Source: Argopecten irradians
Lineage: Eukaryota > Mollusca > Bivalvia > Pectinida > Pectinidae
Assembly: GCF_041381155.1 (NCBI RefSeq)
Contig: NC_091139.1
Coordinates: forward strand, 8,804,383-8,868,382
Length of the DNA: 64,000 nt
Reading direction: 5' to 3'
The translations under genes were made by a program, and so were the position numbers. The notes under the pieces were generated by a model. That model had not been told where the DNA came from. It worked only from the letters and a program-made list of their open reading frames with translations, and ran no database searches. Shown here piece after piece: positions 34,401-63,800 of this stretch; within the stretch, counting starts at the first letter, position 1, and every line of letters starts with the position of its first letter.

Positions 34401-36270
34401 TAAATATGGAGCAATTGGGTCACCTTGACGACACCCTCGTTTAATATTAATAGAAGAATTTAAATTACCACCATGATTGATAAAAGAATAGGCATCTCTA
34501 TGCAGAGTTTTCACCCTAGACAAGATACTTCTACCAAAACCGAAAACATTTAAAACTTCAGTGACATGACACGGAGTCGAAAGCTTTTTCAAAATCTATT
34601 ATCAATAAAATCCCAGAGATATCTTTTTCCATTGCATATATCATTATATCATATACTAACCTTGTTTTAACCCAAATATACCTCCAAGAGAGAAAAACTG
34701 TTCGATCTATATCTATTAACTTATTCAAAACAATTTTTCATAAAATGCTTCGGTTTGTCCGCTTTTGGAATACAAGGAATAATCCCTTGTCTTTGAGTTA
34801 CAGATAATTCACCATTTCGATAACCATAATTATTACCATGTTTTAGTGTTTTACTCGCCTCTTCAAAAGTTATTTCCCTTCTAAATTATTTGACTCAGGT
34901 AGGAACGGTTGTGGAACCTCATAATCACAAAGAAAGTTTGTTTTAATTCAAATCCATTGGTAGATGACCGAGCAAATCATAAAGTTTTCTGTAAAAATTA
35001 CTTATTCTTCCAAAATATATTTTTGTTTAGTCAACACATCATTATCAGTAGAAAGTTTTAGAATAATTTTAGATATAAAATTCCAATTTTCCAAAATAAA
35101 AATAATTTGTAGGTTTTCCCCCTCCTTCACCCATCTTGCGCTAGAGCGAACCAAGCTACCTTTTATTTTTGCCAACCTTATTGCCTCTAATTCTTTTTTT
35201 TTCTTATTATTCAAATTTTCTATATTAACCAAGTCATCTTCCACCATCTCCTTTATAACTTTCTTAATATACTCACTGTAATATTTTGCTGGTATTTTTT
35301 CTTAAGAAGAATAAGAAATAATTTTCTCACTTATTTCCATAAGCATAGTTTCTAAAAATAGCTGATCATTTATAGTTAGTTGTAATTCAGAGACTGGTAT
35401 AAGTTTTAAATGTTATAAACTGGAATACAGTACTATTTTTTAACATTATCAATACAGTTATTAATAATATTAATATATTCAATATCATAAAGTAATGAAT
35501 TATTAAATTTCCATTATCCCTTACCTTTTTTAAATTCATTTAGTTTCAAAGGTATTTTAGCCAAAGAATGGTCCGATCGATAACCTGGATCTCTACATGA
35601 TAGATTTATACTAGACAACAGATTTTCTGTAATAAGAAAAAAAATCAAGGCGAGCTTGCAGTACTGGGTTACTTTTTCCCTACCCCCAGACGGAAACTTC
35701 CCACAACTTTATATAGGAAACAGATCTGCTATCTCCAGTATAATACTTTACCCCTAAAGGAAATTAACAAAACAGGCAGCAACGTTAATCTGTCTTATAA
35801 TACCATCAACATGACGGAAAAGTACTTATCTGAAGGTGGATGAGGATGGGACATAATGGAACAGTACTTATCTGAAGGTGTATGATGATGATGGACATGA
35901 TGGAACAGTACTTATCTGAAGTAGGGTGATGATGGACATGATGGAACAGTACTTATCTGAAGGTGGATGGTGATAATGGAACAGAACTTAACTGAAGGTG
36001 GATGGTGATGATGGAACAGAACTTCTCTGAAGGTGGATGATAATGAATTACATGATGGAACAGTACTTATCTGAGGGTGTGGATGTGATAATGGAACAGA
36101 ACTTACTGAAGGGTGGATGGTGATAATGGAACAGAACTTAACTGAAGGTGGATGATGATGATTAGAACAGAACTTACCTGAAGGTGTATGATGATGATGA
36201 TGATGATGGAACAGAACTTACCTGAAGGTATGATGATGATGATGATGATGGAACAGAACTTACCTGAAGG

Positions 36271-36308
<38 letters not shown>

Positions 36309-36573
36309 ACAGTACTTATCGGAAGGTGGGTGATGATAGACATGATTGAACAGTGCTTATCTGAGATGGAAGATAATGATGGAACAGTATTTATCTGAAG
36401 GTGGATGATGATGAACATGAAGGAACAGTTCTTACCTGAAGGTGTATGATGATGTAGAACAGTACTTACCAAGACCAGGTGTGGTAAAGTCCCCCGGCGA
36501 AAACTCTTATGATAATAAACATGATTATACCGATGAGCAGTTTTGGGATTTTCAAGTTGGATCGCGAACGCAT
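7492..36573 (-). CDS. Unrecognised secreted or signal-anchored protein, four exons
   Basis: I do not recognise the family. Exons in transcript order are 36,573-36,470, 27,983-27,789, 21,690-21,619 and 7,996-7,492 (stop). Donors are gtaagt, gtaaag and gtaata; acceptors are aacag, gtcag and tgtag. Every junction is in phase 2, and the two middle exons are multiples of three (195 and 72 nt), which supports the chain. The product is about 291 aa. Exon 1 starts MRSRSNLKIPKLL, followed by a hydrophobic run (about residues 11-26), which looks like a signal peptide or anchor. Next comes a basic stretch with several dibasic sites (SPRRYRR, VRKK). The last 166 residues are polar, Ser/Lys/Asn-rich and probably disordered, with only two cysteines there. 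Dibasic sites plus a signal would fit a processed precursor, but no known peptide is visible. The third exon has a weak polypyrimidine tract and is the least certain. Confidence 0.5.
8000..9130. other. Intronic stretch, nothing recognised
   Basis: This is the distal part of the last intron of the minus-strand secreted-protein gene. It has AT-rich and (ATAA)-like simple sequence around 8,010-8,070 and no supported gene. Confidence 0.5.
9131..10042. repeat. Minisatellite, 18/28-bp units with TACTAGTTACTTTGACAG
   Basis: A tandem array of about 0.9 kb is built from 'tactagttactttgacag' (18 bp), usually combined with a 10-bp spacer such as 'attttgacag', giving alternating 18- and 28-bp periods. 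The centre (9,200-9,660) is homogeneous and the right side (9,700-10,040) is diverged. That is the usual pattern of central homogenisation by unequal exchange. Nearly every unit carries ACTAGT. Confidence 0.95.
10043..12850. other. Intronic or intergenic stretch with weak open frames only
   Basis: Open frames occur at 10,793-11,077 (+), 11,170-11,403 (-) and 11,523-11,867 (+, 114 codons). None has a recognisable domain, splice-site support or repeat structure. They could be remains of an old mobile element or chance. No RNA gene is seen. Confidence 0.4.
12856..12863 (+). promoter_or_regulatory. TATA box candidate
   Basis: TATATAAG lies in a locally GC-richer context about 230 bp upstream of the signal-peptide ATG at 13,087. 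A start site about 30 bp downstream would give a roughly 200-nt 5' UTR. Upstream ATGs lie in that interval, so an intron or another start site may exist. Confidence 0.3.
13087..13244 (+). CDS. Candidate first exon of a small secreted protein
   Basis: The ATG opens a 52-codon frame that reads into a good donor (AT|gtaaga at 13,245) in phase 2. Residues 1-24 look like a classical signal peptide: MVRR, then the hydrophobic core LYVGAVTIILFGLCSV, then a short polar end TTRG. After it come a Gln/Ser/Pro-rich stretch and RPKLRWCQGST with one cysteine. If the donor is not used, the frame stops one codon later. I found no second exon, so the product is unknown. It lies inside the last intron of the minus-strand gene, transcribed oppositely. 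Confidence 0.35.
13245..15331. other. Gene-free stretch apart from one MITE
   Basis: Apart from the palindromic element at 14,074-14,238 this AT-rich region shows no supported gene or RNA. Confidence 0.45.
14074..14238. mobile_element. Palindromic MITE (family 1, copy 1)
   Basis: Terminal inverted repeats: 'gcgtattacagagttat' at the left and its imperfect reverse complement, ending 'ctgtaatatgcaaaga', at the right. Further inside, 'cccttgtgggtaggta' faces 'tatctacccacaaggg'. The centre carries 'gacgtcatgcgtttgcgagcg'-type and 'gctcacaaaataatgacgt' motifs shared with copies at 59,997-60,180 and, partially, 55,855-55,935. Confidence 0.8.
15332..15407 (+). CDS. Orphan first-exon candidate
   Basis: AACATGGCGG starts a 25-codon frame ending at a consensus donor, TCATCAG|gtaaga. 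The predicted N-terminus MAVSTPRGRMGYLLRNRLV is arginine-rich and lacks acidic residues early on, like a mitochondrial presequence, but no downstream exon was found. The local sequence is CpG-rich (gccgcgcggccgc) against an AT-rich background, as at promoters. A chance frame remains possible. Confidence 0.3.
15408..16100. other. No gene seen
   Basis: AT-rich DNA with no supported feature. Confidence 0.4.
16103..16575. repeat. Decayed tandem repeat, about 55-60 bp
   Basis: Six to eight diverged copies of a unit containing 'ttcctccttctagaactaa', 'ataatgcaaagacc' and 'atcatacagctgtttcg'. Heavy divergence shows that it is old. Confidence 0.7.
17460..17730 (+). repeat. Low-complexity AAC/ACG-rich tract
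   Basis: The tract is dominated by imperfect 'acaacgac' and 'gacaatgac' words. It leaves one frame (17,477-17,728) open and Thr/Asn/Asp-rich. Compositional bias explains the open frame better than selection does. Confidence 0.6.
18041..18120 (+). other. tRNA-like or SINE-head-like fragment
   Basis: 'gtgtaatggttaggtgctgg' resembles a pol III A box (compare 'gccgagtggttaggtgtc' at 1,271-1,288), and an imperfect B-box-like 'ggtaccaaattc' follows about 45 bp later. No full cloverleaf can be drawn, so at best this is a decayed tRNA-derived SINE head. Confidence 0.25.
18778..19500. repeat. Diverged minisatellite, about 48-50-bp unit
   Basis: Twelve to thirteen imperfect copies of a unit containing 'gtccctaacatcactgacaa' and 'gttctagagggacaaaacag'. 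The consensus-like copies lie in the middle, and both ends are decayed. Confidence 0.85.
19500..20770. other. No gene seen
   Basis: Contains a locally GC-rich patch (about 19,810-19,980) with no recognised feature. The rest is AT-rich. Confidence 0.4.
20771..21310. repeat. 68-bp minisatellite, about eight copies
   Basis: Copies start 'cccgtacaatgtca' at 20,771 and every 68 bp to 21,247. The copies are nearly identical with a few linked variants (aatagtg/attagtg, cacaaag/caccaag); the last is degenerate. The array lies just downstream, on the minus strand, of the third exon (21,619-21,690) of the secreted-protein gene. Confidence 0.95.
21700..24320. other. Intronic stretch with an old duplication
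   Basis: No coding exon is seen. About 22,958-23,105 and 23,279-23,412 are diverged direct copies (shared 'ccaaatacaaaataaca' and 'cacaaccattgt'). A further related block ('gatttagacaccca' / 'ttttagacacctaa') lies at about 23,165 and 23,628. Confidence 0.5.
24322..24730. mobile_element. MITE-like element with 17-bp terminal inverted repeats
   Basis: Termini 24,322-24,338 (ccgcgcgtttcatttgc) and 24,714-24,730 are reverse complements with two mismatches. The interior has a second near-inverted pair around 'actggtacgaa' and 'atggtacgaat', and an AAGATGGCGG block (24,431-24,440) like a YY1/Pho site. There is no transposase. Confidence 0.6.
24731..27788. other. AT-rich intronic stretch, nothing recognised
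   Basis: Only short open frames without splice support. No tandem array or RNA gene is seen. Confidence 0.45.
28013..31640. other. Intronic stretch; irregular CATTCAATGAC repeats
   Basis: No supported exon. Between about 30,312 and 30,800 the word 'gacattcaatgacctt' recurs irregularly, which indicates a badly decayed tandem array. A GC-richer island (28,786-28,958) is open on both strands but has no recognisable product. Confidence 0.45.
31640..33180. repeat. SINE-like 'gggccataactcc' repeats, three copies
   Basis: Two tandem copies at about 31,665-31,820 and 31,820-31,980, plus one at about 32,980-33,180. Each begins 'gttaatcaaagggccataac' or close to it and continues with 'accaagtttcgagaa'-like sequence. 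The third ends in 'gacagagagacggacagaca' and 'gcgggggataaaa', resembling the 3' end of dispersed repeats common in molluscs (from memory of the family). They are diverged. Confidence 0.6.
32375..32498. mobile_element. Foldback hairpin element, about 124 bp
   Basis: The outer arms 'cacgtgccacaggcgtctgc' and its near-perfect reverse complement (32,479-32,498) flank imperfect inner arms that meet at 'ctactatatagtag' around 32,430. The whole element folds into one hairpin, as expected for a small foldback MITE. Confidence 0.75.
33297..33511 (+). pseudogene. Orphan terminal-exon-like open frame
   Basis: A strong acceptor (attttttcag|AT) precedes a 71-codon frame in phase 1 ending at TGA. The text DLFNDITNMDLMALTDSQEN, then QLPQFNKTL and an amphipathic NVNFHGIVQNL end, reads like coding sequence. 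It faintly resembles C-terminal tails of Crypton/KIAA1958-like mollusc proteins. No upstream exon was found, so it may be a mobile-element or gene relic. Confidence 0.25.
33517..33603. repeat. GC-rich hairpin with internal direct repeat
   Basis: 'ggtgttgggaccaacctg' (33,517-33,534) faces 'caggttggtcacaacacc' (33,586-33,603). Inside, 'cctgcggcctcgggaaac' occurs twice, at 33,531 and 33,561. Confidence 0.7.
33620..35755 (-). mobile_element. LINE fragment, Tx1/L1-like, broken
   Basis: In minus-strand order the fragment shows the end of an apurinic endonuclease (QARLDFFL, GYRSDHSL near 35,570-35,640), a linker with SLVRSSARWVKEGEN (35,002-35,247), and reverse transcriptase with GCRQGDPIAPYLFILCAEIL and the catalytic YADD (34,191-34,592). 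The thumb/C-terminal region IKRDIVVQDFLNGGVKMINI lies at 33,505-33,888. Several frameshifts separate these blocks, and both ends are missing, so it is dead. It sits in intron 1 of the minus-strand secreted-protein gene, in the same orientation. Confidence 0.85.
35815..36469 (-). repeat. Donor-anchored array after exon 1 of the secreted-protein gene
   Basis: Read on the minus strand, exon 1 ends CTTG|gtaagtactgttc at 36,470. The following DNA repeats 'caccttcaggtaagtactg', then 'ttccatcatcatc', about 13 times with variable (ATC)n. Several copies keep a consensus CAG|GTAAGT or CAG|GTAAGA donor; others have the G>A variant cagataag. The array therefore starts at the true 5' splice site and extends into the intron. 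Confidence 0.8.
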
Positions 36574-36589
36574 TGTATATGATATTTCG

Positions 36590-36690
36590 AGATGAATTGT
36601 CTATAGCTATAATATAATGCTTGTTGATTGCTTGGTATCTAACAAGTGAGAAACATAGCGTCACGAATCTATGACGTCACAATGTAGCAG
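36590..36690 (-). promoter_or_regulatory. Putative promoter of the secreted-protein gene with a CRE
   Basis: About 100 bp upstream of the start codon at 36,573 lies a perfect cAMP-response element, TGACGTCA (36,672-36,679). A TATA-like AT run covers about 36,601-36,620. The TATA-like run is close to the ATG, so either the 5' UTR is very short or an upstream exon exists. CRE function is established for CREB-family factors; its use here is inference. Confidence 0.3.
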
Positions 36691-37905: not shown

Positions 37906-40900
37906 ATGGCGGCGTCATATCGACAGGTGAGTTTTACTAAAAACATTAGCCGGGATAAAAATTTGACATTTGGTGAAATCAGCGATATTGTCGGAGACAA
38001 GTCTAGAACACGTAATGGATGTATACCATTAATACTGTATTAACCGTTGACCTGTCCAGTACGACCGCGATGGTCGGACTTTTATTTTGGTATCTAGTGT
38101 AAACAATGTATTGAAAGTAACGTAAACAACCGCGAGCCCGCTACAGCTACACTGTAGATGTACATTACTATACATGTTTGCAATATATTTTTTGGTCATA
38201 GTTGTTAAGTTTACGGTAAGGAACGGCTTCTTGTTATCATATTGAATCTGTACAGTTTACAGTGAAGATAGTGAATGTAAACATAAAAAATGCACAAAGA
38301 GCAAATTGACATCAACTATAAATAGGCATACCTGTATATATCGATTTAATAATATGGGAATTTCATTGGCGCCATTTTTAAACAATTTTTTAAGCGTCAG
38401 TAATGGTTTCGTGTTAGTTTTCACTGCAATTTAATTAAAATTTGATCTTCTATAATGTCGCTCTCCGGAGACCGTCCGTTCGTCCGCTTCTAATAGTTTA
38501 GTTATACGTATTTTTCAGCACCATTAATTCAGGGTTTGGTTTCGCGTTAGTTTATATTATTTTATATTATTGTTTGTGTTAATTAAACATATATATATAC
38601 ACGATTAAACATCAATTATTTTTCAAATGATGAGTATCGTGTATGCTCTGTCGGGGGTGGAACATCTTAAATAATTCATCAGCATCAGCAATTTTGTGTT
38701 ATGTTTTGTTCAATACACACATATATGCTTACCTTGAAATAAGTACGTAATTTGTCATATACTTCTCATTATAAGACGTTATGTCCATTTCTCACTGTCA
38801 TTTTCCTCCTCTGTTTTAACTTTAACACAGGGTACGGTGAAAGCATGCGGACCAGACTTCAACCCAGAGAGCGCAGCTCAGGCTTTCCACAAGGCAATGA
38901 AGGGCCTAGGTGGGTGACGCATTTTATTTCTACCAATACAATAAACATACTAGGCTATCATCGTCTGATGGCTAGAATACTAGTACGATACACAATATTT
39001 TCCCTGTGATTTCATTTCACGATATTCAGTGACTTGTCTTGGCACTGAAACAAGAGGAAGCGCTGGAAAAGTCATAAAAGCCCGGACTTTGACGAAATAC
39101 ATGTAAATACGGAGAACATTTTATAGTACATTCTTGAAACTCGTAAAAAATTGATTTTAATAAACCTTTCGTACACGCAACAAATGTACGAACAATTTTT
39201 TTGTGTATCTTTTTTTTTTATTTTCAGAAACAACACATTGTTTCATAACCATTTTGAAATAAATATTTATACCTCATTCATCTCATTCTTTCAACAACAA
39301 TTTCAAACTCCCTGGTTTGTGTTACAAATAATCATTCATATCGCTCATTTATCTTCAATTTCAGTTTCGCCTCTAGCATAAGCATTGCTATTGGTATACA
39401 TCATAATGTACGAACAAATTTGAAACGAAATATTTTTTTTATTTCCTCGTTAAATCGCAAATCAACTAGGAGATACTTCGCTGATGGCGGCCTCGTTGAA
39501 AGTGTACACACTTGTAGACAAGCATTGATGGTATTATAGATCTTGGTGGAGATAGGGGTTTTTCCCCCTCCTACACCGACTTTTGAGTTCCGGCTATGCA
39601 CGCACAGATATTATAGTGTTATTTACAAATATTTAAAAGTATCACTATTAACAAAAAATAAAATATCTATAAATTCCAGTCATAAGGACTGAAAATATGT
39701 ATCAATTTAAAATATTGGTGTCAAATGAATTGAGGGTACCCTATGTGTATACGTACTAGTTAATAGATTTAGTTTCATAAAATTTTGATCTATTTATAGG
39801 GTAGATTGATACAATGATATATAATGGGGAACACTGATACAAGTGGCGGGGCAATCCCCAAACAACTTGTACCTACTTAATGGTAAATGAGTATATAAAC
39901 CTGAATAGACTGGGGATTAGAATTGGTCTATAGGCTGCATAGGTGTTTTATAGAGTCTCTTTTGCAGTTTCCTTAGACCAAATCTATTTTAAAAGTTACA
40001 CTACCGGCCTCACTAAGGATGTTCACTTAGGACAAACTTGTTGTTAGTCTTCCAATATTTGTTGAGCTGAGTCTTAAAGCTGTTGATTGACTTGGCGTTG
40101 ACTACCTCGTTTGGTAATGCATTCCAGTGATTGATGACTCTATTGGAGAAGTCATTTTTTGTTGTATTCAGCCTGACCTGTCTCTTGAACAGTTTGTGGG
40201 TATTTCCTCGGGTTGACTGGTATGGTCGACTACTAAACATTGTGTCTGAGACTATTTTATCATGCTTATTAATAATCTTGTATAGTTGAATCAAATCACA
40301 ACGTTTTCGTCTATACTCCAGTGTAGGGAGACCCAATGTTCTAAGTCTGTCTTCGTAGGACAAGTCTTTGATATTTTTAATCCTCTTTGTAGCTCTACGT
40401 TGGACATTTTCGATTTTGATGATATCTTTTTGTAGGAATGGTGACCAGATGGTAGTGGCATATTCTAGGTGCAGTCGTACCAGGGATTTGTAAAGAGTTC
40501 TGGATATATGTTGGTCCATGTATGTAAATGTCTTAAAAATTACTCCTATGATACGATTTCCTTTTTGTGCTGCTATGTTAGCTTGTTCCGAGAAGTTCAG
40601 CTTCTCATCTATGATCACACCTAGATCCTTTTCTGTTGAGACTTTCTGGATAGTTATGTTTGAGGATTCGTTCCGGATGTTGTATTGGGATGTTTTCTCG
40701 TTGTTACCAATCTCCATATGTTTACATTTGGTAAGATTGAGAGTCATCAGCCAGTTCTCTGCCCACTTTACCATTTTATCTATACTATTTTGTAGTTCTT
40801 GTCTGCTACCCGGAGTAGAGATTTGTTTGTAAAGTTTGGTGTCGTCAGCAAACATTTTAACAAGGCATGGCACAACTTCTGGAATATCATTTACATAGAT

Positions 40901-43900
40901 CAGAAACAGTACTGGTCCCAGAACACTTCCTTGGGGAACTCCACTTGTTACAGGTAGACTATGGGAACGTGTTCCGTTAACAATTACTCGCTGTTCCATG
41001 TCCGTGAGAAAATTTCTGATTCATTGGAGAACTCTCCCTTTAATACCATATTGTTCCAGTTTGTGTAGCAGTCAGCTGTGACATACCTTGTCAAACGCCT
41101 TGCTGAAGTCCAGGTATATCACATCGGTATTGTGGCCTTCATCCATTGATATTGTCCAGTCTTCCAGGCATTCCAGTAATTGAGTGGTGCATGAACGTCC
41201 CTGTCTGAATCCGTGTTGCTCTTTTGTGAATAGGTTGTTGGTATCCATATGTTTGACAATTTCGTCTCTCACTATTCTTTGTAAAATCTTGCTAGGTACT
41301 GAGATCAGGCTGATTGGTCTGTAGTTACTAGGGTCTTTCCTTGAACCTTTTTTGAATATCGGGCAAACGTTGGCTTTTTCCATGGGTCTGGGAGTGTCCC
41401 TTCTTGGATTGATTTGTTGAATATAATAGTTAGAACACTTTTTATTTCATTAACTGTTTTTGCCAGCAGCATTGGATGGATATTATCTGTTGGTGATTTG
41501 TTAGGGTTGATTTTATTGATGGCTTTTTCAACTTGTGTGACAGTCACAGTAATCGTCTCAAGGGGTTCAGCAGTTTCTGGTTGGAAGGTGTGGTCTTTCT
41601 GTGATTCTTTCCTCTGCAGTAAACACACTGGCGAAGTATTTATTCATAGTGTTGGCTATTTCTTCGGAGGTCGATGTTAGCTCTCCTGATGGCATTGTAA
41701 CATTTCCAATCGTTGTAGCTGTGTTGGTTTTAGTTCGAACATATTTCCAGAAAAGCTTCGGATTTGTTTTTATTTTGTCAGCCAGGTCTTTTTCGTAGTA
41801 GTATTTGGAATGCCTCAGAGTTTTTGTAGCTCGGTTCCTAGCCATTTTATATTCAGCAAAATTGTGAGCGGATTTACAATGTAGGTATTTGGACCGCATT
41901 TCCGTTTTCGTCTAACTGCATCCTTAGCTGTTTTGGATATGTATGGTTTTGAATTTCTTTGGCTGCAAGTTTGATGTAGTGGAATGTTCTCCCTAATTTC
42001 CCTATCGAGTTGTTGACTGAAGACTTCCCAGGCTTCCGATACTGGCCACAAATACGTGTACTACACAGAAACCTCATCAAAATATATTGACATTTGTTTT
42101 AGTATATATGAGATGTTTGAAGCTGTCTTTGGTAGATTAATGCTAATATCCATTTTATTTTCCGTTTCTGGTTTTCTATCCAGTATGTAGACAGATCTAT
42201 AAATTACCAACTTACAGTTTGGACGTGATAATTGGAGCTCAAATCTGGTTGCATGATCTTAAGAGGCGACTTCTTTATTTTTTACTTATTTATTTTTTTA
42301 ATCTTTATTTTTTTAATCTTTCATATCCATTTGCTTTCTAAAGATTTATGTATTTATGTATTTCGAGATATCACTAAATGACGTGGGTGAAGAATGATTT
42401 AAAAAGTCTTGAACGTTCGTCCGTCTTCCGGTGATTGTGACGTTCATAATTTGACGAAATTTCGTCACAATCACCGGAAGACACATCTTTCTGCGAGAAA
42501 AATTGAAAACGGTATTTGCCAGCTCAATGAATATGGATGTGTCATATTTTTTGTATTTGGTGGATGGACTGATGGTATAAATGACAGTCATGGGTGTTTT
42601 TTGTAAATACGTAATTTGGAAAAATTATTTAAAAAAAAAACGTGATATTTACTGGGGCCAACTCAATGAATATGGATGCTTTCCATACATTTTTTAGTAT
42701 TTTGGTGATGGACTGAAATGATTATATATGACTGGCATGTGATTTTTTTTTTTTTGAAACGAGAATTGAAATAATTAATTAAAAAAATCGGGATATTACT
42801 ATTTAAAAAAAAAAAATCACATGACTCGTCCATATATACTCATATCAGTCAAATCCACTCATATATACAAAATTCCTTAAAAAAAAAAAAAAAAATGTAT
42901 GACAACGTCCATTTTCATTTAGATGTCCCCCTGAGCGTCCTTTGACAGTTCCCCTTGACGAAACTAATTGACGTCCCAGGCTGTGACGTCAGCTTGTACA
43001 TATATATAAATATAGGACCAAATCAGTCCCTTTCCCCTGAGACGTCATAAAAAATCTGTACTTTCCGACAAACGAAGGGAAAATTGAAAACGGGATTAAT
43101 GTTTCCGAAAAATTCGACGTAAATTCGTATTTTTCACCCACGTCGTTTCAGTGATTTTGGTGTCTCGAAATCGACATATTGGGCTCAAAAAAACCAAACC
43201 AATCCACAGTGTATTTTAAGGGAAAATTTGGTTTCTACCGAGTGTACGCATGTCAGGGTATGGACCCTGTGACATACTATGTATTCCTTATTGCAACAAT
43301 TAAGAGGGTATCGCACGATGAAGACCACGGCCTCTACGATTATCGGAAGTAGCCTATATTGCTTAGCAACCATTATTCGACGCATCTGGTGCTGTATCCC
43401 GTTGTCTTTAATATGGTATTGCCTATGCAAATAGTGGAAATCAAATACAAAGTAACAACATAAATATAAAATTGGGACGTGAGCTAAAACCATTTCCATA
43501 ATTCCAATGGGTTAACAGTTTTGAAATATTTGACCTTGGACATGAGCAATACTTGTCTCTAGTGCAATTGTAACTTACATGTATATCCATATAAATTGCA
43601 TTATCAAAATGTTGATAAGTAAACCTACGTTTTGATATGTTTTAGCGTCATTATATGCGGGTACTTCTTACATTTTTATAAAGGTACGGATGAGAAGGCT
43701 ATCATTAACCTCTTGTCTGGGCATTGTAACAGCGAGCGTCAGGAGATTAACGCCATTTCAAAGTCATGTTTTGGAGCGGTAAGTACAAGGTCATAGTTTG
43801 GAGCGGTAAGTGCCAAGGTCATGTTTGGAGCGGTAAAGTTTACAAGGTCATGTTTGGGAGCGGTAAGTCGTAAAGTCATGTTTGGAGCCGTTAGTCCAAG

Positions 43901-46900
43901 GTCATGTTTGGAGCGGTAAGTTACAAGGTCATGTTTGAGCGGTAAGTCGTAAAGTCATGTTTGGAGCGGTAAGTCGTAAAGTCCCATGTTTGGAAGCTAT
44001 ATAGTTAGTCCAAGGTCATGTTTGGAGCGGTTTTAAGTCCCGAAGGTCAATGTTGGTGGTGAGCGGGGTATAAGAATCCCCCAGCGATGAGAAAGTGGTT
44101 TGTTGATGCAGTTGTAAGTGTACAAGGTGGTTTTATCTATATGATTTAGGGTCCTCAGTTTTAACGGGATAGTCTGCTTACTCTAGACTAGTAAAGGATC
44201 ATTACTCATTACTACTGTGCCAATAAGTCACAAGATTTTCCAACACGATGACATCGTCTTCTGCTCTACTTAGCAAGTTAGTTTGATCTAAGATGCATGA
44301 TCCAGCAACTCCTAACTGTGAGCTTTATGAGATTTACAATTACCGGGGATGAGGAAAAAATGGGGATCAAAGTCCATTAGATTCTGGATATGTGATTTGT
44401 AAATATATCATTAGTTAAATCAGCAGTTTTTTTAAGTAAGTGGGTTGATGAAGATGGACTTCTGGTGGACAAAAAGCCCCAGGATTATTTTTTAAACAAA
44501 CACAGGATACCAAAGTTAAGGTGCTGCAAATAGTCGTCTGGTATAGAATTTTACCAACTAAAATTTTTCTATTCAGAATTAAGGTAGTGAATTCTCCGCT
44601 ATGTAAATTCTGTAGTGATGAAAATGAAACATATATACATTTGTTTTACGAATGTTCAAGGATAGCAAAAACTTCGTAAGGAGTTTGAGAAATGGTTACA
44701 TGAGAAAACCACTTTCAATGTTAGTTTATCACCATTATCAATACTGCTTGGACATAAACAATACGTTAAAATATAATGTCATTACTTTTCAAACAATATG
44801 TATATCATTGTAGAATTAAGAAAATTTATGTATGGTTTGAAGTACTTTAATTACATATATGTAAGTATTATGAGGCGGAAAAGGTTATGTATCAATCTAA
44901 AAATGAATATACAAAATTCCTTATAAGATGGGGAGGATGGCATGCATTGTTTGAAAAAGAAAACATTGAAATGCAGTTGTCTCTTTGACAATCCACATAT
45001 TGTAGATAGATAAAATGTTGGTCTTGTAGGGTTTGTGTAAATGTGTATGTCCAATTGTTACTTGTTGCATATATACAAAAAATGTAATGTAAGACATATT
45101 ATTGGTATTGTGATGAATTGTATTCCTTGTTCTGTGTAATAACATGTTCATGAAAATCAATAAAAAATTTGAATGAGAAAAAAAAGTATTGTAAGATTCA
45201 AATTGACATATTTTGGCATAATTGGTTTCAAGGTTATGTAAATTAAGAGAAGCAGTTTTATATCTTTTTAGGGACATAAGTGCAGGGATTATAGGTACTG
45301 GTGTTTGGGACAGTAGGGTCATCATGTCATATCATAAATCATGTTGTGCATAGCAGGTGACAAGGTCATTTCTGTAAAGGTCATGCCTGTAACTTAGAGT
45401 GTACCGCTTTCAAGGTCGTCATCAGCGGGTTCTGATTTTAGTTACCTTTGTTGCTATGTTTCCGATAAACTGATGTAGTCTAATAACTAATTTACAGATA
45501 CAAATATGTTGATAAATTGTGAATCTTTTTGTTGCAGAATCTAGAAGACAAACTGAAGGGAGAGTTAGGTGGCCATTTCCTGGAGCTGTGTCTGTGTCTC
45601 TTGATGCCAAGCTGTCAATTTGATGCCTGGTGTCTCCATCAGGCCATGAAGGTCAGTCATGTATCTCCATCAGGCCATGAAGGTCAGTCATGTATCTCCA
45701 TCAGGCCAGGAAGATCAGTCATGTGCCTACATCAGGCCATGAAGGTCAGTCATGTGTCTCCATCAGGCCATGAAGGTCAGTCATGTGTCTCCATCAGGCC
45801 ATGAAGGTCAGTCATGTGTCTCCATCAGGCCATGAAGGTCAGTCATGTGTCTCCATCAGGCCATGAAGGTCAGTCATGTGTCTCCATCAGGCCATGAAGG
45901 TCTGTCATGTGTCTCCATCAGGCCATGAAGGTCAGTCATGTGTCTCCATCAGGCCATGAAGGTCAGTCATGTGTCTCCATCAGGCCATGAAGGTCAGTCA
46001 TGTGTCTCCATCAGGCCATGAAGGTCAGTCATGTGTCTCCATCAGGCCATGAAGGTCAGTCATGTGTCTCCATCAGGCCATGAAGGTCAGTCATGTGTCT
46101 CCATCAGGCCATGAAGGTCAGTCATGTGTCTCCATCAGCCATGAAGGCATCATGAAGCCATGAAGGTCATGTGTCTCCATCAGGCCATGAAGGTCAGTCA
46201 TGTGTCTCCATCAGGCCATGAAGGTCAGTCATGTGTCTCCATCAGGCCATGAAGGTCAGTCATGTGTCTCCATCAGGCCATGAAGGTCAGTCATGTGTCT
46301 CCATCAGGCCATGAAGGTCAGTCATGTGTCTCCATCAGGCCATGAAGGTCAGTCATGTGTCTCCATCAGGCCATGAAGGTCAGTCATGTGTCTCCATCAG
46401 GCCATGAAGGTCAGTCATGTGTCTCCATCAGGCCATGAAGGTCAGTCATGTGTCTCCATCAGGCCATGAAGGTCAGTCATGTGTCTCCATCAGGCCATGA
46501 AGGTCAGTCATGTGTCTCCATCAGGCCATGAAGGTCAGTCATGTGTCTCCATCAGGCCATGAAGGTCAGTCATGTGTCTCCATCAGGCCATGAAGGTCAG
46601 TCATGTGTCTCCATCAGGCCATGAAGGTCAGTCATGTGTCTCCATCAGGCCATGAAGGTCTGTCATGTGTCTCCATCAGGCCATGAAGGTCAGTCATGTG
46701 TCTCCATCAGGCCATGAAGGTCTGTCATGTGTCTCCATCAGGCCATGAAGGTCAGTCATGTGTCTCCATCAGGCCATGAAGGTCTGTCATGTGTCTCCAT
46801 CAGGCCATGAAGGTCAGTCATGTGTAAAGTTCTCTGGTGTCCCCACCAGACCATGAAGGTCAGTCATTTGTTAATGGGTCTGGTGTCTCCACCAGGCAAT

Positions 46901-52866: not shown

Positions 52867-53109
52867 CACTCATTGTTTTCAACAAACAGTATGCTAGCAT
52901 GGTGAATGAAGATTCACACTTTTTCTTTCATTGATCCAGGAAGAGAATTTTATGTAATAAACCTTCACATGTGGTATCTAAGTGTTGCGCATTTCATTAA
53001 AAAAAAAAGATTCGTGAATGTATATATTATATCCAATATTCTGGCTACATGGCCAGGGCATGAAGGTTCTAAAAAATATTCTTATACATTGTATATTCAA
53101 AATTCCATA

Positions 53110-55580
53110 TTACTGGGCCATGAAGTAAGACTTGAGTTTATCCACGGCTCGATATCTATGAGAAATTGTGTTCTTGGTAGACTTCGGCATCTCAGCATAT
53201 GTCTGTGTGAAACCACTGGGCTGGAAACAAGGGTCCCAGCCAAAGTCTCTCGGTCCTCGGGGATCCACGATCGACCCCTCAGTTTTACCAACGAACAATT
53301 TAACCTCTGAGTCCTTTTTTCCATCACAATAGGCAAATATACACATAGCACAGGCGGTCTTGTCCTCAAATCCGGCTAGCATCTTGTACAGACCTACAAA
53401 TCAGAATCCATAGATACAATTGACATAAGGACAAATACATACTGGGTATTACAGTGATAGCTAAGTTATTACATGACATATACCCTAATAATGATCTGAA
53501 TGGTTTTCTGACAGCCATTATAGCTGCTACTACAAAAAGTCCTTGCTTGTTTGACAGTTCTTAAGTATATGGCATTGACATAAAATGATCTTCAGTAAAT
53601 ATGTACATATATTTTTAGCTTCCAAAACCATATGGGCAATTTAGATTCTTTCAAAATTTTGAAAATTAGATTTCTCTGTAATATTTAAGATCTTTAAGAT
53701 AATATTAGGTTATCTTTCTTCATAGTGGTTAAGTTAATGACCTGTCTATCAGAATTATGGCCAGTTAGGACTTCACCTTCAAACTAAGGGCCTTTTCAAA
53801 ATTGTATGAACTCTGTAAACAAATGAATTATTACTGAACAAAAGTTCACTGACCTTCTGGTCCCACACTCTTTAGGAACCACTTGATATAGGGGCCAGGC
53901 ATACCCCCTAGGGCGTTAAAACACAGACTCGTGTCTTCCGTCAGGACCGGGCCCTTCACATGCTCAGCTGCAAGGCGACACTTGGACCGTGCTACTTCCT
54001 CTGGATCACCCTGATATTCAGGAAGGTCAATATCCATACTGGTCACCTGACAACAGGGGAGATAATCAACATCAAAGAAGGGACTTAATTTAAGGATAAA
54101 TATTGTAAACATGTGAAAACTATGTGAGGAGGAAATTAACGCTAATAATGCAGAGACTTTATGAGACTAAAAAATTAACAAGCAAATTTATTGCGAACAT
54201 AGAAACATTATGTAATGTTTTACACAAGCGAATCACGAAATAAAACACTCTCAAATATATCCACGTTTACAGCCGTATATATATCTCTCAGGAAACAATT
54301 TTAGGTGACAATTAACTCCATCTTGGGAAACCCACGGATGATCGCACAACACTACGCTACACTTATCACCCGTGGGCAAACTCCTTGTAAAATCCTCCTA
54401 AAATATGCTAATTAACATACTAAAATTGACCAATTAAAATACTCGATATATAGTTCGAAACTCTTCAGAATGAAAGCTGCTGGTTTAGTAGCTTGAAGAT
54501 AAGCAAAAAGAATATGGGGAAATATTTCAGTGTTTATCTATTGAGTCGGTGAACGGACATGTCTGTAACCAGTATGTAAACAAACTGAACAAAATAAATC
54601 AGCTGAATTGAGACATCCGAATCAAAAGGCAAGGTCACACAGACCAGGCGTTATTACGATAACATTGACGAAAATACCTTATACCTAATAACATTAAGAC
54701 TATTAGTATAAAACACTCATATGACAATACCTATTTAAGCCCTAATAAAGCATAATATTATTACAGAAATACCTAATAAAGTCCTATACTGCTATGAACG
54801 AAGCTAACAACGCTTTTGTTCATAGTTTACCTGGCCCATACACACACGTGTATACACCGCTCGTGCGCACACAGTATCGCGTACCCAAACATTCGCCAGG
54901 TGCAAGTGTTGGCCATCTTTGTTGTGCTGCCGTATACTGTACTTAACACTTACTCTGATTAGATGAAATCACATCGCAAAAATGTGCTGGAACCAATCAA
55001 ATTCTTCATGCATATAAATTACCTACGAAGAGTTTTCCCACAGGTGATAAGTGTAGCGTAGTGTAGTGCTATCACCCGTTGGTCGCCGACAAATGAATTA
55101 ACTCATACCTGTTTACAACTGTGTGGGGATAAAAACCTCTGCATCTACATAATAATAAATACTAGTGTGAAGTGACTTTACTTTGAGGAAAATATTGGGT
55201 TCCAAATTAAGCTACAATGTAATTTTTATTATACTTTTTTTTTATTTTTGCTTTTTGAAAATTAAAATGATTTTCCCCTCATATTGGAATTGTCATTAGT
55301 GAATTATGATGGATATCAAAACAAACTTGATGACAAATGGGCCATTAATTGGCCCAAAAACCTTGCAGAGAAATATCCATACTGATGATTATAATATGAG
55401 GCAATATCTATGATAATAAAATGATAAATCATATAAATACAATTCTTGTATTTTAGTACAGTATATTTTGATTATTCTCACCTTGTATTTAAAATCTGCA
55501 CCCAAAATGTCTTGAAATTCCTGCAGTTTTTTCTTATTTCCAGTCACCAGGACAATTTCTGACTGTGCAGCATTATTCAT
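53110..55580 (-). CDS. ITPA: Inosine triphosphate pyrophosphatase (ITPase)
   Basis: Cytosolic enzyme that hydrolyses ITP, dITP and XTP to monophosphates and pyrophosphate, keeping deaminated purines out of nucleic acids. Coding exons in order: 55,580-55,482, 54,046-53,854 and 53,393-53,110 (TAA), giving 191 aa (human about 194). Family motifs are intact: TGNKKK (13-18) of the nucleotide-binding loop, DLPEYQG (40-46), [20 protein letters not shown] (70-89), FGWDPCFQ (148-155) and SHRYRA (175-180). An acceptor at 55,611 in the 5' UTR implies a non-coding first exon further upstream, not located. Three coding exons is fewer than in vertebrate ITPA. Intron 1 holds a roughly 0.8-kb inverted-repeat element. 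The gene is convergent with annexin and divergent from HBS1L. Confidence 0.95.
54309..55103. mobile_element. Inverted-repeat element in ITPA intron 1
   Basis: Arms of about 80 bp, 54,309-54,391 and 55,022-55,103, are reverse complements. They are best around 'actacgctacacttatcacc', followed by 'cgtgggcaaactcctt' at the left and 'ctgtgggaaaactctt' in the complemented right arm. The interior is AT-rich with repeated 'cctaataaa'. No transposase is visible. It occupies more than half of the intron. Confidence 0.75.
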
Positions 55581-57858: not shown

Positions 57859-60800
57859 ATGGCCCGGCATAGAAATGTTCGGACTATGAACTACGAAGAT
57901 GGTATGGTAACATTCTTATGGAATACACTGATTTATATGCTTGGTGTCACTCATTCATGATTCAATCATTTTGAAATTGCAAGAACTGGAAGGAGTCTCA
58001 ACTCTGTTAGTGTTATGTAGACGATTAGGTCTAAATTAGGTCACAAATAGAGAAATTTGAAAGTCAAATAGGGGTAAAGAAAAAAAACACGATTTATTTA
58101 ACTGATCAAATACGCTGTCTACATAAAATTACACGCATTCATATTTATTCATCACTGTAATACACTGACACTGCAAAAAGGTTTTCAGCTGGAAATACCA
58201 AACTAAACAACTTTGATCTTTTTAAGACTGCACCGAAAAAAACCCTTAAAAAAACACTAAAAGAACTCCCTTTGAAATTTCACATCCTGCTCTCACCTCA
58301 AAACATGTCTACATATATATATATAGTGCACTGGTCTGGTATAATTCAGTGATGACTGATCATAAGCAGGCTCATGCAGCCTGATACGTCATCATTTTAT
58401 ATCATTCCTCGGAAATATACATACATCCTCGATACTCTAGGGTTTAAGATTAGGTTTGGGACACTCCCGTATATGCAGAATAGTCCTGCATTTGAGTAAC
58501 ATTCCTGTATTTGAGGGATAATTTTGTTATGCAAATGCAGGATTCGGTGAAATGAAAATGGATAAAGTTATTTTAAACATTGGTATAAAAAAGGGCGTCA
58601 AAATTTTTACATGGCATCATCACTAATACAACTTTCCATATTCTTACTCAAATGGAAACAAATTTCATAATCTAAATGTTTGTAAAAGTCACAAACAAAA
58701 TCACCTCTATTGTTTACTATGGGGCTAAAAACAGACCACAGATAAAAGTCAATCAATCATGACATTTGCACTAAATTTCCCTGATGGCTATACACTATCT
58801 ATGGAGAGCACCTAATTTGTCACTTTATTGCAAAGTGAGATAATAGAATTCAATAGTTCACACACAAAAACAAGACTTCAATCAGTTATATGGCTATCTG
58901 AAAATGATGACGCCCTTTTTTGATACAAATTTTGAAAACAACTTTATCCATTTTCATTTCACATAATCCTGCATTTCCAGGGGGGTGGATATAAAGACAG
59001 TTGTATATAAGACTAATAGTTAACCCCTGGTAGTGGAGTATCGAGGATAATATATATAAATGTCCATATGACATGTCCATTTTGTATACTATATTGACTA
59101 AATCACAGGTCCTTGAATTTTAGATTAAAACAGAAGCATTTTGTTTTTAAAATGTCAATTTCATATACCTGGTAATAGAAAGGAAGAATGGAAACAGATG
59201 CATTTGTTTTTAAAATATGAATTTCATATAATCTAACACAGAAAGAATGATGACTTAATTATGTCATCACCCTTAATTATAAGAATTTAAAAAGTAATTT
59301 GATCTAGTACATTGCTACGTTAGTAACCAGAAACTAATTTCAACTTGATTCAGAATGATACTAGGACATTTGGAACAAATGCAATGGGATATTCCATAGT
59401 TCTGTCTAGTGTCCTGGATTTGTCTCGGCACTGCCCTCTATAGGAATCTACAAGAAGCCACCTACTGTCACACTCGATATCAGGAATTGACATATAGATA
59501 TAGATCCAGTCACTATAGCACAATTTTAAACTAAAAAATATAACTGGCAATACATGTACAGGGTTCTCACTAAGTTTTTTAATAGATGGTTCAAAATAAA
59601 TAATAGGTGGTTGGGGGTCACAGGTCCCCATGGTTGTCAATACTTATTTCTGACTAAAATAGCCGGTTGTAAACAAGGAAATAGACGTCTGTTTTTGCCG
59701 GCAATCGGCTTTTAACGAGAACCCTGCATGTATATATTTTCCATATATCTGACTATATTTGTGTTTATGATGATTTCAGAGTGTTATGATGATGACGACT
59801 ACCTGGGACACTCTGTGGAAGACAACTACTGTATTTCTCCTGGCACTGGTGAGTACCACATGTACATTTGTGTAGTATAACTCTGATGGAATGGCTAAAA
59901 GGACATCTCGACCTATGTGGCTATTTTAACTTAACTGTGACATTTAATTACTTCTTACCGGGTAGCTACTATAGAGTTCAGCATTAGATATTCTGTATTT
60001 GCATATTACAGTGGTATTTTCACTTGCGGGTAGGTATTGATTGTGATGTCATGTGTTTGCAAGCGTACGCAACGTCATAATTTTTTCAGAAAATGACATG
60101 AATTGCGCTCACAAAATAATTAAGTCACAATGCATATCTACTTGCAAGGGAGCTAATTATAGCTCTGTAATATGCAAAGATGGAATATCTACTTTGGGAC
60201 CAGATATATAAAATGTTGCATGTTCTTAAAGTATTAATATATATATCTGTGAATGAGTGATACATAAATTAAACTTATAAATGTGCTGGTATATAGTGAT
60301 TTGATAAAGGAAATATTTTACATTTATCATATAGAAAGATTAAATACAATGGATATATGATAATGTTTATCTTTATAGCGGCCCAGTTTACTTTTAATCG
60401 TGAGAAAGACTTTGACCTCTCTAACTACATGGGTAATGAGAAGATCCCCGAGGAGGAAGAAGGATTTGACAGCGACACAGATGCACCATCTCTTAATGAC
60501 TCCCAGGGCTACAAAAAACCAGATCTCAGTGACGTGGAACAAGGTAAGAATCCCTGTTGTAAAGAGGTCAGGTTTAATTATGGTTACAAAAGGCCTGACC
60601 TTTGCTTTGTACATATGGTAAGATTGAATAACTGTTATAGCTACAAAAAGTATTACCTTTGGGACATGGAAAAAGTTACGATTGAAAATTTGAATTAAGG
60701 CTGCAAAAAAACCTGACCTAATAACAAGGAACATGATGTTTAATATCTAATATGAAAATGATTATCTGTCATTAGTATACTTTACTATTTTAAATGGTCA

Positions 60801-63800
60801 AGGAAGAGTTTTCACAAACTGAAACTATATATATTCAGTAATTTCATTATTTTTTTTTTCAGCTAAGTTGAATTCTTGTTTAGAAGAAATACGCAATATT
60901 CTTGGTGATAGCACTCCAGACCACATCCTGTATCAGACAATCATCAAAAACAAATTCGACTTACAAGCCAGTCTCAACGAATTACTTAAAACAGATGGTA
61001 GGTAAAAGGGAAAGACAAGTCAGTCTCAATGAATTACTTAAAACAGACGGTATGTGAAGGGGAAAGACAAGTCAGTCTCAACGAATTGCTTAAAACAGAC
61101 AGTAGGTAAATGGGAAGACAAGCCAGTCTCAATGAATAACTTAAAACAGACAGTATGTGAAAGGGAAAGACAAGCCAGTCTCAACGAATTACTTAAAACA
61201 GACTGTAGGTTAAGGGGAAAGACTAATAGAATCTTACATGGGCCTGACAGGTGGACAAGATATCTCAACCCGAGTGAAAGATTTTGGCTGTCATACTTTG
61301 GGAAGCCTCGGGTTTACAGTCAAAATCTTTCACAAGGGTTGAGATATCCTGTCCACCTGACAGACCAATGTTTGATTCTTTTCCTCCCATACTTCAATGA
61401 AATATTTTGATAATGTCGCCATCATAGGAACGTTGCAATGCTTCAAAAATTCATGACGTCATAGACAATAGTCACCCCATGTAATGATGACATCACATCA
61501 TTGTCTTGCACATGTGAACTGTCGACAGAGTTATCTTTTCCCTAGCAACTGGGGGATTAACCTGTCAAGTATGAGAGAAAAGCCAGTCTCCAAATCATTG
61601 TTATCATAAGATGGTAGTAAAGACATAGAAAGATTCAAGAAAGTCTTCACTAAAAGATTTGTTCTGATTACACAGAATTCACAGGCTTAGAGCCTCACAT
61701 TAAATAGTGTTACAGACATTCAAAGTTGAATCGCAATTTCAAAATTCAGTAAATAAAACATCTTAATTTTTAATCTTAGAAAATTAGTAGGAACTTTGTG
61801 GTCCTCCACGATTTACAAATGACATCTTCTCAAGCTGCCACTATATGGTACCACAGATTGCCGGTTGTTTGGCCTAATCTACTGTTGTGATCTTTATCTT
61901 TCTGCAAATCTTATTGATAGTTGTAACTTGTCGGATACATCAATCAAACAAAACTGCAATCATATGTTGACAATAAATAATCTACAAAATAAAGAAATGT
62001 AAGTTATTTATATATATATAAAAAGTCATGCTATATGAAAAGTTGTAAAGAGTAAAAAGATATGTCATGATAATTTTTTGTTTTTTTTTACACAGTTTTA
62101 TGTTTTTGTTACAGATGCCCCTAAACCACAGAGACAGCCGAGACAAAATCGGCGGAACAGATCACAAGGTAAACGCTTTGCTGTTACTAGTGCCGATAGA
62201 TGATATAAACCTACACTAAAATTATACTGGGAGATAAAATTTAGAGGATTGATAAACCGCCCAAAGTAATCATAATGGAGATAAATCTGTTGTGGCGATA
62301 TAGAGAATGAGATAGTTTGGTTAAGAAAAACAACATTGAAAACATTGTTGATTTTTTTTTTTTTTTTTCTTACTCAGAAATTCTAATGAAATACTTTGAT
62401 GTTTTAATGTGAAACAAAAATGCTCTGGCATATAAAGAGACCATAATACAGAATAGAGATAAATTATTCAGACTTAAGATATAGGTATTTATTCTTTACA
62501 TGCTTATCATTAGAAATTGCTTAACTAGTTGCCTTTCTTTCTTCTTCATTCTCTCGTGCTGTTTCCTTGGCTGCCGGGTTTTGTTATGAATTATCTCCCT
62601 TGGTGCTGGTGTGTGATTGCCTCCCTTTTCGGCGTCTGTAAGGTAAGGCGATGATGATGATGATGACTTAGATAGTTTTATGGAGTCACTTGAATCTGAA
62701 TCTCCAGAAAAAACACATTTTCTATCATATCAGAACAAAAATTTAGGAATATTGAAGTTTGGTAAACTCTCTCCATCTGTTGAAAGCCCTATAACAGATA
62801 TTCCGAAAAAAGGTGAAACACACCAAATAACTTCAGAATCAGCTGACTCCTCGTTAACAACAGGTGCATTTGTATCATGTAACCCTACAAAACCCAAGGG
62901 CAAGGTCGGGTTACAAGGTCAATCCCAGGGCTTAGGAGGACTTTCATTGTCCAACCTTGCTAAACAACACAGTGCTGCCAGACAGGGGGTCAGTCTGGCT
63001 TCCCTGGCAAAGCCAGATGTAAAAAAAAGTTTAGAGGGAAAGAAAGAATCAGGAAGTATAGAAAGAAAGGCTAATGTGGCAAATCTGAGCCAGCAAGCTG
63101 GTCAAGCTGTAGCTAGTGGAACCCAAAAGGGTGAGCCGTCATTGGCAGGAACACAGCTAACTGGAGAATCTAACAAGTCATCAGGGCTGTCGCTCACAGA
63201 TTTGATCAATAAAAAACAATCTGGAAATAAACCTAATGCGGTCACAAAGAGTAAACTACAAGTGTCGAGAGTGTCCCTAGCAGACCTGGCAGGTCAAAGG
63301 TCACAGTCAAATCTAGCAGGGGGGACCAGGGCTAATACCAATACCAAAGTTTCACTTGTTGATTTGGCAGCAAAATCATCAGGTCCACCGAAATCAGCAT
63401 CAACAGTAAGTCAACCATCCAGTAAGATTGGGAAATCATTGGCTGATTTAGCAAGTCAACACAAAACAACAACGGAGGGAGCAGCCAAAAAAGCAGCTAC
63501 AACAGACGCTGTGATTGGTCAAATGTCTGGTCTTTCTCTGGCCGACTTAGCCAAAAGTAATAAAACACCTCAACAAAAAGGACCGGTACCAAGTGTAAAG
63601 TCTCTTCGGGAATTGACAACGCAGCAGCAAAAATCAACAAAAACAAATACTTTATCTGATTTGACAAATCAAAGTAGATCAAAAAGACTAGAAACAGGAA
63701 GTGGGGCCGTCTTGTCAGCCGGTAGGAAAGTGCAACCTGTCTCGTTGGTACAGAGGATGGATTCCACTGTCGATGAAAGTGTTTTAAGTGATCAGTTTTC

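What the first reader, a model, noticed from the sequence alone, without database searches (positions are those of the whole stretch)
35815..61222. Tandem arrays that start exactly at 5' splice sites, six times in three genes
Six arrays begin at an exon/donor junction and replicate that junction into the intron: annexin exons 3, 4 and 6, HBS1L exons 3 and 4, and exon 1 of the minus-strand secreted-protein gene. Unit lengths (26, 31/46, 30, about 59-74, 52 and about 45 bp) and sequences differ, so they are independent events. They range from fresh (HBS1L exon 4) to nearly decayed (HBS1L exon 3). No array in the window starts at a 3' splice site. This suggests a mutational process at donors (for example nick or R-loop-related slippage at exon-intron boundaries), or tolerance or selection for decoy donors. 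It may also be a route to intron gain or exon extension, as in the known tandem-duplication model of intron creation. The recurrence is seen directly; the mechanism is inference.
Basis: partly seen in the sequence, partly recalled or inferred. Interest (0 to 1): 0.9.

Follow-up and report, generated by a model that had tools for sequence, protein, structure and literature searches.

The report
Repeats that copy exon-intron donor junctions
Four exons in two neighbouring animal genes have their last 20-37 bases plus the start of the next intron copied in tandem, from a few to about 64 times, a kind of repeat already described in lancelet genes, whose preference here for the intron's start, if general, could show how genes tolerate extra splice signals.

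Summary
The core observation holds, with corrections. Three gene models were built by homology: annexin, HBS1L (5' part) and a Ham1/ITPA-type gene. They give 15 donors and 15 acceptors. At 4 of 15 donors (annexin exons 3 and 4, HBS1L exons 3 and 4) the exon tail recurs downstream (each p=0.0005, the floor). None of 15 acceptors does so beyond chance. The arrays do not start at the donor: they start 20-37 bases inside the exon and straddle it. The annexin exon 6 array starts 14 bp into the intron and does not copy the junction. The minus-strand case is a real array beside an unproven exon. This is the structure called a 'mirage' in amphioxus. My reading: short tandem duplications straddle a donor, are tolerated because the first donor is used, and grow inside the intron. 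Donor bases in the copies vary like other bases, and 20 of 22 tested copy donors lead to a premature stop, so decoy-donor selection is not supported. Still interesting: the 4 TRF arrays of 200 bp or more in these genes all begin within 40 bp of a donor. No genome is held, so no genome-wide test was possible.

The parts
37906..50719 (+). Annexin gene, 9 coding exons (37906-37926, 38831-38909, 43684-43778, 45538-45651, 48283-48373, 48788-48936, 49395-49572, 50143-50255, 50594-50719)
   Evidence: Spliced ORF of 321 aa; Pfam PF00191 E 4e-78; gapless across the e3, e4 and e6 junctions against the first half of annexin VI 1m9i
43759..44074 (+). Array straddling the donor of annexin exon 3; unit about 27 bp (20 exonic + 7 intronic), 11 copies including the exonic one; none of the 10 downstream copies has the exon's TTTT run
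   Evidence: (p=0.0005)
45630..47979 (+). Array straddling the donor of annexin exon 4; 64 matched copies including the exonic one; 31-bp units near the exon (45630-46825), 46-bp units and higher-order repeats distally (46791-47979); exon copy identical to the commonest 31-bp unit
   Evidence: (p=0.0005)
48950..49277 (+). 30-bp array beginning 14 bp downstream of the annexin exon 6 donor; does not copy the junction
   Evidence: p=0.95, 0.33; p=0.89
57859..64000 (+). HBS1L gene, 5' part, exons 57859-57901, 59780-59848, 60379-60543, 60863-60997, 62115-62168, 62648->64000
   Evidence: PF08938 HBS1_N E 2e-13; PDB 5lzw E 1e-26
60507..60733 (+). Decayed array straddling the donor of HBS1L exon 3; 4 copies including the exonic one, spacing 75, 58, 59 bp, 66-75% identity; not reported by TRF at the settings used
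   Evidence: exon tail p=0.002, whole junction p=0.006; p=0.0005; did not stand out
60963..61223 (+). Array straddling the donor of HBS1L exon 4; 52-bp unit (35 exonic + 17 intronic), 5 copies including the exonic one
   Evidence: (p=0.0005)
35809..36470 (-). Array beginning at the putative donor of an unproven minus-strand exon; 17 copies with a donor column, 6 of them keep GT
36470..36573 (-). Putative first coding exon with signal-peptide-like start (MRSRSNLKIPKLLIGIIMFIIIRVFAGG...); no Pfam match
53107..55580 (-). ITPA/Ham1-type gene, 3 exons; neither of its 2 donors nor its 2 acceptors is repeated
   Evidence: (PF01725 E 9e-56)

Best explanation
These are junction-straddling minisatellites of the kind called 'mirages' in amphioxus. 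A short tandem duplication (about 27-75 bp) happens to cover an exon end and its donor. Splicing keeps using the first donor, so the mRNA is unchanged and the duplication is tolerated. The copies downstream are intronic, free to mutate, and expand or contract by slippage or unequal exchange. The exonic copy is held by protein-level selection, which is why each array seems anchored to the exon. Acceptors are spared, I infer, because a short duplication across an acceptor puts a usable AG upstream of the real one, and scanning from the branch point would take it and insert the unit into the mRNA. Shown: straddling copies at 4 of 15 donors, none at 15 acceptors, different units, interior homogenisation, no detectable constraint on donor bases, mostly premature stops if later donors are used. 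Inferred: use of the first donor in vivo, the duplication route, and the reason for the donor-acceptor asymmetry.
For: 4 of 15 donors against 0 of 15 acceptors in the same test (one-sided Fisher p=0.0498). Homology shows that the first donor gives the conserved protein. None of the 10 downstream annexin e3 copies has the exon's TTTT run that the reading frame needs, so the exon looks ancestral. Interior copies of annexin e4 average 99.3% identity to the exon unit, the three copies next to the exon 95.5%, distal copies about 91%; amphioxus BflGb6 also excludes cluster boundaries from homogenisation (PMC3087553 passages). Donor columns evolve like other columns in the 4 arrays tested. By U1 pairing the first donor is the strongest in 3 of the 4 confirmed arrays. 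PMC3087553 states that the Adh3 data and its own globin RT-PCR suggest no interference with splicing (passages).
Against: In annexin e4, 46 of 56 downstream GT copies pair with U1 at least as well as the first donor, so use of the first donor must rest on position or exon context, which was not tested. If random tolerated duplication were the whole story, large purely intronic arrays should be common in these genes, yet 4 of 4 TRF arrays of 200 bp or more begin within 40 bp of a donor (P 3.7e-5, post hoc); the annexin e6 array is near a donor without copying it, which tolerance does not explain. HBS1L e3 did not stand out in the first junction test. The donor-acceptor difference is only marginally significant. 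No transcript data.
Confidence: 0.75

Rival explanations
1. Donors are mutational targets: transcription- or U1-linked nicks, R-loops or replication stalling at exon-intron borders cause tandem duplication there preferentially. (Not exclusive of the best explanation.)
For: All 4 TRF arrays of 200 bp or more in the homology-supported genes begin within 40 bp of a donor (P 3.7e-5 at 40 bp, 1.7e-4 at 60 bp, 9e-3 with 2 of 4 at 20 bp), including annexin e6, which does not copy the junction and so gains nothing from splice tolerance.
Against: The test is post hoc on one window with 4 arrays. Unit GC skews are inconsistent (-0.47 to 0.73), so R-loop propensity is not shared. Ten of 15 donors have neither a copied junction nor an array of 200 bp or more beginning within 40 bp.
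Confidence: 0.2
2. Copies are kept because extra donors are useful: decoys that hold U1 snRNP, regulate splicing of the exon, or protect the intron from premature polyadenylation.
For: Many copies keep a usable GT (56 of 63 downstream copies in annexin e4, 8 of 10 in annexin e3, 4 of 4 in HBS1L e4).
Against: Donor columns are no more conserved than others (Fisher p 0.60, 0.26, 0.49, 0.15); 11 of 17 minus-strand copies have lost GT; HBS1L e3 copies have decayed.
Confidence: 0.06
3. Intron birth or exon extension in progress (Rogers / Zhuo / mirage model): copies become alternative exon ends or seed new introns.
For: Units of annexin e4 hold an AG 9 nt before an AAG|GTCAGT donor, so AG and GT alternate along 2.3 kb. 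Human boundary repeats can create introns (PMC2812944 passages). Annexin e4 copy 4 (+93 nt) would read through in frame.
Against: No copy at any of the 15 acceptors. 20 of 22 tested copy donors lead to a stop before the end of the next exon. Homology needs no extra residues.
Confidence: 0.1
4. Assembly artefact: repeats collapsed or expanded by the assembler.
For: Long near-identical arrays such as 45754-46822 are hard to assemble; no reads are available.
Against: Different units with graded divergence, and a decayed case (HBS1L e3), are hard to get from assembly error; the copy number in annexin e4 may still be wrong.
Confidence: 0.03

Closest known systems
Amphioxus 'mirage' minisatellites (Adh3; globins BflGb6 and BflGb9; PGBD5; other genes cited there)
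   Same: Tandem repeats whose unit spans an exon-intron boundary; units 10-72 bp in Adh3; many copies carry AG/GT signals; normal splicing reported; interior homogenised, boundary copies excluded (PMC3087553 and PMC3902484 passages)
   Different: Amphioxus cases include 3' splice sites (BflGb6, units 150-160 bp); here only donors, with units of about 27-75 bp. Polymorphism and somatic instability not testable here.
Internal tandem repeats at exon-intron boundaries in human segmental duplications
   Same: Minisatellites with units averaging 30 bp, some at exon-intron boundaries (PMC2812944 passages)
   Different: There they alter splicing and can form new introns, with transcript support; here no such evidence.
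[quoted passage not shown] potato RdRp, ATP2A1, fission-yeast 24-bp AGGT repeats)
   Same: Short tandem duplications that carry splice signals (PMC4974935 passages)
   Different: There a new intron forms between copies; here introns carry the arrays on their donor side and acceptors are unrelated to the copies.
Human IFI6 (6-16) minisatellite with multiple donor sites (recalled; the search listed three papers, two of them on IFI6/G1P3, none of which I opened; the original was not seen)
   Same: Minisatellite whose unit holds a donor (recalled)
   Different: From memory, there several donors are used; unknown here.

Membership tests
Mirage minisatellite (amphioxus) | Tandem units of minisatellite size next to an exon | tested here: met
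   Units about 27, 31/46, 52 and 58-75 bp, 4 to 64 copies
Mirage minisatellite (amphioxus) | Unit spans the exon-intron boundary | tested here: met
   Met at 4 of 6 claimed junctions; not met at annexin e6; inconclusive at the minus-strand exon
Mirage minisatellite (amphioxus) | Boundary copy excluded from homogenisation of the interior | tested here: met
   Annexin e3 and HBS1L e4 exon copies differ from the array family; annexin e4 copies next to the exon are less alike than interior ones, although its exon copy itself equals the commonest unit. Too few and too decayed to judge at HBS1L e3.
Mirage minisatellite (amphioxus) | Normal splicing despite copies | not testable with these tools
   No RNA data; homology favours the first donor
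Mirage minisatellite (amphioxus) | Copy-number polymorphism, somatic instability | not testable with these tools
   One haplotype only; no whole genome held
Intron gain by tandem duplication | Matching sequence at the 5' and 3' ends of the same intron | tested here: not met
   None of 15 acceptor heads recurs in its intron beyond chance; no array found reaches an acceptor of these genes
Intron gain by tandem duplication | Intron absent from relatives | not tested
   No related genomes available
Selected decoy donors | Donor bases conserved among copies more than other bases | tested here: not met
   Fisher p 0.60, 0.26, 0.49, 0.15 in four arrays; HBS1L e3 not tested

The most novel reading that the evidence does not exclude
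In this animal lineage, short minisatellites anchored at 5' but not 3' splice sites are a genome-wide class, produced by duplication that is favoured near donors and shaped by a rule of splice-site choice: short units survive only at donors, and acceptor arrays must be long enough to carry their own branch point.
Probability: 0.3. Interest if true: 0.72.

Novelty: new member of a known kind. Interest (0 to 1): 0.42.

Why it matters
If general, such arrays are natural experiments in splice-site choice: annexin exon 4 has 56 downstream GT copies, 46 of them at least as strong as the real donor by U1 pairing, so strength alone cannot pick the donor. The donor-acceptor and unit-length asymmetry can be tested in any genome with RNA-seq, and would also show how far boundary duplications feed intron gain. 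They may also mislead gene predictors: in lancelet PGBD5 an exon predicted inside such repeats was judged doubtful and left out (PMC3902484 passages).

Tried and rejected
Annexin e6 as a junction copy: rejected (p=0.95 for the exon tail, 0.33 for the junction; 0.89). Its best partial match (TCAGGTAAGGGGTGAGA-like) is not in register with the 30-bp period by my reading of the coordinates.

Decoy-donor selection: donor columns compared with the rest in 4 arrays; not supported. In the distal, older part of annexin e4 alone the donor columns vary 0.062 against 0.093 (p=0.20), in the direction of constraint but not significant.

R-loop signature: GC skew of units inconsistent.

Acceptor arrays: 15 acceptor heads tested; lowest p 0.034 (HBS1L e3) and 0.048 (HBS1L e5), expected by chance in 15 tests. 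At the loosest TRF setting 20 arrays lie in the three genes; of the 16 under 100 bp one begins 48 bp from a donor (ITPA) and two lie 19 and 49 bp from an acceptor (HBS1L e2, ITPA e2), none crossing it.

A first junction test (50-base query) separated only annexin e3, e4 and HBS1L e4; HBS1L e3 did not stand out there (score 13, 26% of background positions as high) and was recovered only with other queries. With its whole 84-base junction as query p was 0.006: 2 of 500 target shuffles reached its score of 36 (maximum 38), and query shuffles went up to 41.

Microhomology at duplication breakpoints: printed but not interpretable at HBS1L e4, because an inverted repeat begins within 4 bases of the array end.

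Exon models were out of frame and were replaced by those.

Genome-wide test, orthologues, RNA: not possible; no genome is held for this window.

Rfam: no match at gathering thresholds. Earthworm metallothionein minisatellites (PMC12783039 passages) lie in intron 1, with no statement seen that they copy a splice site; a TERT paper (PMC5405514 passages) had nothing relevant.
Full report
WHAT IS THERE. The window carries three genes that can be modelled by homology: an annexin of nine coding exons (Pfam PF00191, E 4e-78; annexin VI in the PDB), the 5' part of HBS1L (PF08938, E 2e-13; PDB 5lzw, E 1e-26) and, between them on the minus strand, a three-exon Ham1/ITPA-type gene (PF01725, E 9e-56). They give 15 donors and 15 acceptors, all GT-AG. 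No whole genome is held for the window, and I could not verify that the host is a bivalve.

THE TEST. For each donor I aligned the last 40 exonic bases (21 for annexin exon 1) to up to 350 intronic bases beyond the first 16, and for each acceptor the first 40 exonic bases to up to 350 intronic bases upstream, against 2000 dinucleotide shuffles. Four of 15 donors reach the floor of the test (p=0.0005): annexin exons 3 and 4, HBS1L exons 3 and 4. The other 11 donors have p from 0.43 to 0.999, including annexin exon 6 (0.89). Of 15 acceptors none is below 0.03; the two lowest are 0.034 and 0.048. One-sided Fisher for 4/15 against 0/15 is 0.0498. An earlier 50-base junction test found only three of the four; HBS1L exon 3 did not stand out in it. 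With other queries HBS1L exon 3 gave p=0.006 and 0.002.

ANATOMY. Annexin exon 3: 11 copies including the exonic one, about 27 bp, 20 exonic and 7 intronic bases; 9 of 11 keep GT; none of the 10 downstream copies has the exon's TTTT run, which its reading frame needs, so the exon looks ancestral. Annexin exon 4: 64 matched copies over 2.35 kb; 57 of 64 keep GT; the exon copy equals the commonest unit. The 35 interior 31-bp copies average 99.3% identity to it, the three next to the exon 95.5%, and the distal ones, where 46-bp units predominate, about 91%. HBS1L exon 3: 4 copies, 66-75% identity; of 3 with a donor column 2 keep GT. HBS1L exon 4: 5 copies of 52 bp, the downstream four 88-92%, all with GT. 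So arrays begin 20-37 bases inside the exon and straddle the donor; they do not start at it. The annexin exon 6 array begins 14 bp into the intron and does not copy the junction. The minus-strand array 35809-36470 is real, but the exon beside it rests on a signal-peptide-like ORF with no family match, its exon shares only about 12 imperfectly aligned bases with the unit, and 11 of its 17 copies with a donor column have lost GT.

FIRST DONOR. Alignments to annexin VI and mammalian HBS1L run without a gap through the annexin e3, e4 and HBS1L e3 junctions when the first donor is used; for HBS1L e4 only two residues beyond the junction align, so the frame decides. If a later donor were used, 20 of the 22 copies tested (copies 2-9 of each array, where present and with a donor column; 3 of the 22 have lost GT) would meet a stop before the end of the next exon. 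The exceptions are annexin e4 copy 4 (+93 nt) and HBS1L e3 copy 3, whose GT is gone. By U1 pairing the first donor is strongest in three of the four arrays, but in annexin e4 46 of 56 downstream GT copies are as strong or stronger, and in the minus-strand array 4 of 5. Position or exon context must decide there (inference).

SELECTION ON COPIES. Mismatch rates in the nine donor columns against the others: 0.034 v 0.040 (annexin e4), 0.046 v 0.019 (e3), 0.111 v 0.071 (HBS1L e4), 0.110 v 0.069 (minus array); none differs significantly. HBS1L e3 was not included (too few copies). Power is low in the small arrays. Decoy selection is not supported.

CLUSTERING. With TRF at match 2, mismatch 3, indel 5, score 50, nine arrays with units of 10 bp or more and at least 2.5 copies lie in the three genes. 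The four of 200 bp or more all begin within 40 bp of a donor; the other five (40-93 bp) lie within 60 bp of no junction. At score 40 eleven more short arrays appear; one begins 48 bp from a donor and two lie 19 and 49 bp from an acceptor, without crossing it. With array-free intron length as the space, the chance of 4 of 4 large arrays is 3.7e-5 at 40 bp, 1.7e-4 at 60 bp, and 9e-3 for the 2 of 4 within 20 bp. This is post hoc, from one window. Arrays of 200 bp or more also lie outside these genes (at the stricter setting 9130-10014, 18827-19341, 20769-21321, 35809-36470; three more at the laxer one), where donors are unknown.

WHAT IS KNOWN. [quoted passage not shown] they occur at both 5' and 3' boundaries, are said not to disturb regular splicing, and have boundary units excluded from homogenisation (PMC3087553: passages read). 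Lancelet PGBD5 has 60- and 108-bp repeats abutting 5' splice sites (PMC3902484: passages). The original Adh paper (NAR 2002, PMC117041) is not held. [quoted passage not shown] Ten literature searches showed no title or abstract start that reports such arrays in molluscs; one search listed 15 of 92 papers and 20 of 24, and most listed papers were not opened. An abalone gene has a 27-bp minisatellite in intron 3, position relative to the splice site not seen (PMC6905558: passages). The searches cover open-licence papers only.

MECHANISM. Best supported: random short tandem duplication across a donor, tolerated because the first donor is used; then growth, homogenisation and decay in the intron, with the exonic copy held by protein selection. 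The donor-only pattern would follow if short duplications across acceptors are harmful, because they place a usable AG upstream of the true one; the amphioxus acceptor mirage BflGb6 has long units (150-160 bp), which fits units that carry their own branch point. That last step is inference. A donor-linked mutational process is the main rival: the annexin exon 6 array and the clustering of large arrays favour it, and only a genome-wide survey can decide.

Noticed in passing
window 61225-61382 (arms 61225-61291 and 61316-61382): A 67-nt inverted repeat (85% complementary) starts within 4 bases of the end of the HBS1L exon 4 array; by eye, AATCTTACATGGG from it also occurs in annexin intron 8 (about 50524-50540), and CCTAGCAAC near 61541 occurs there as its reverse complement, suggesting a dispersed element.
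   Followed up: partly
window 56777-57316: Foldback element with long near-perfect inverted arms (89 nt 98% and 34 nt 100%) and a further 35-nt hairpin at 56707-56782, between the ITPA and HBS1L genes.
   Followed up: partly
window 40013-42060 (minus): Decayed LINE-like reverse transcriptase ORFs inside annexin intron 2 (RVT_1 in 40016-41020; neighbouring ORFs); a second RVT_1 fragment at 34194-34595 minus.
   Followed up: partly
window 45630-47979 and 43759-44074: Units of both annexin arrays contain AAGGTCA, which resembles an extended nuclear-receptor half-site (recalled), so the arrays also multiply that motif many times.
   Followed up: no
window 8004-8074: AT-rich 12/24-bp array directly upstream of a putative acceptor (TTGTTGTAG) of an unassigned minus-strand ORF 7495-7995; it resembles an expanded pyrimidine tract rather than a junction copy.
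   Followed up: no
window 46791-47979: By eye, the 31-bp unit of annexin e4 looks like the 46-bp unit minus 15 bp between GTGT repeats; the more diverged 46-bp units lie distal and the young 31-bp expansion lies on the exon side.
   Followed up: partly
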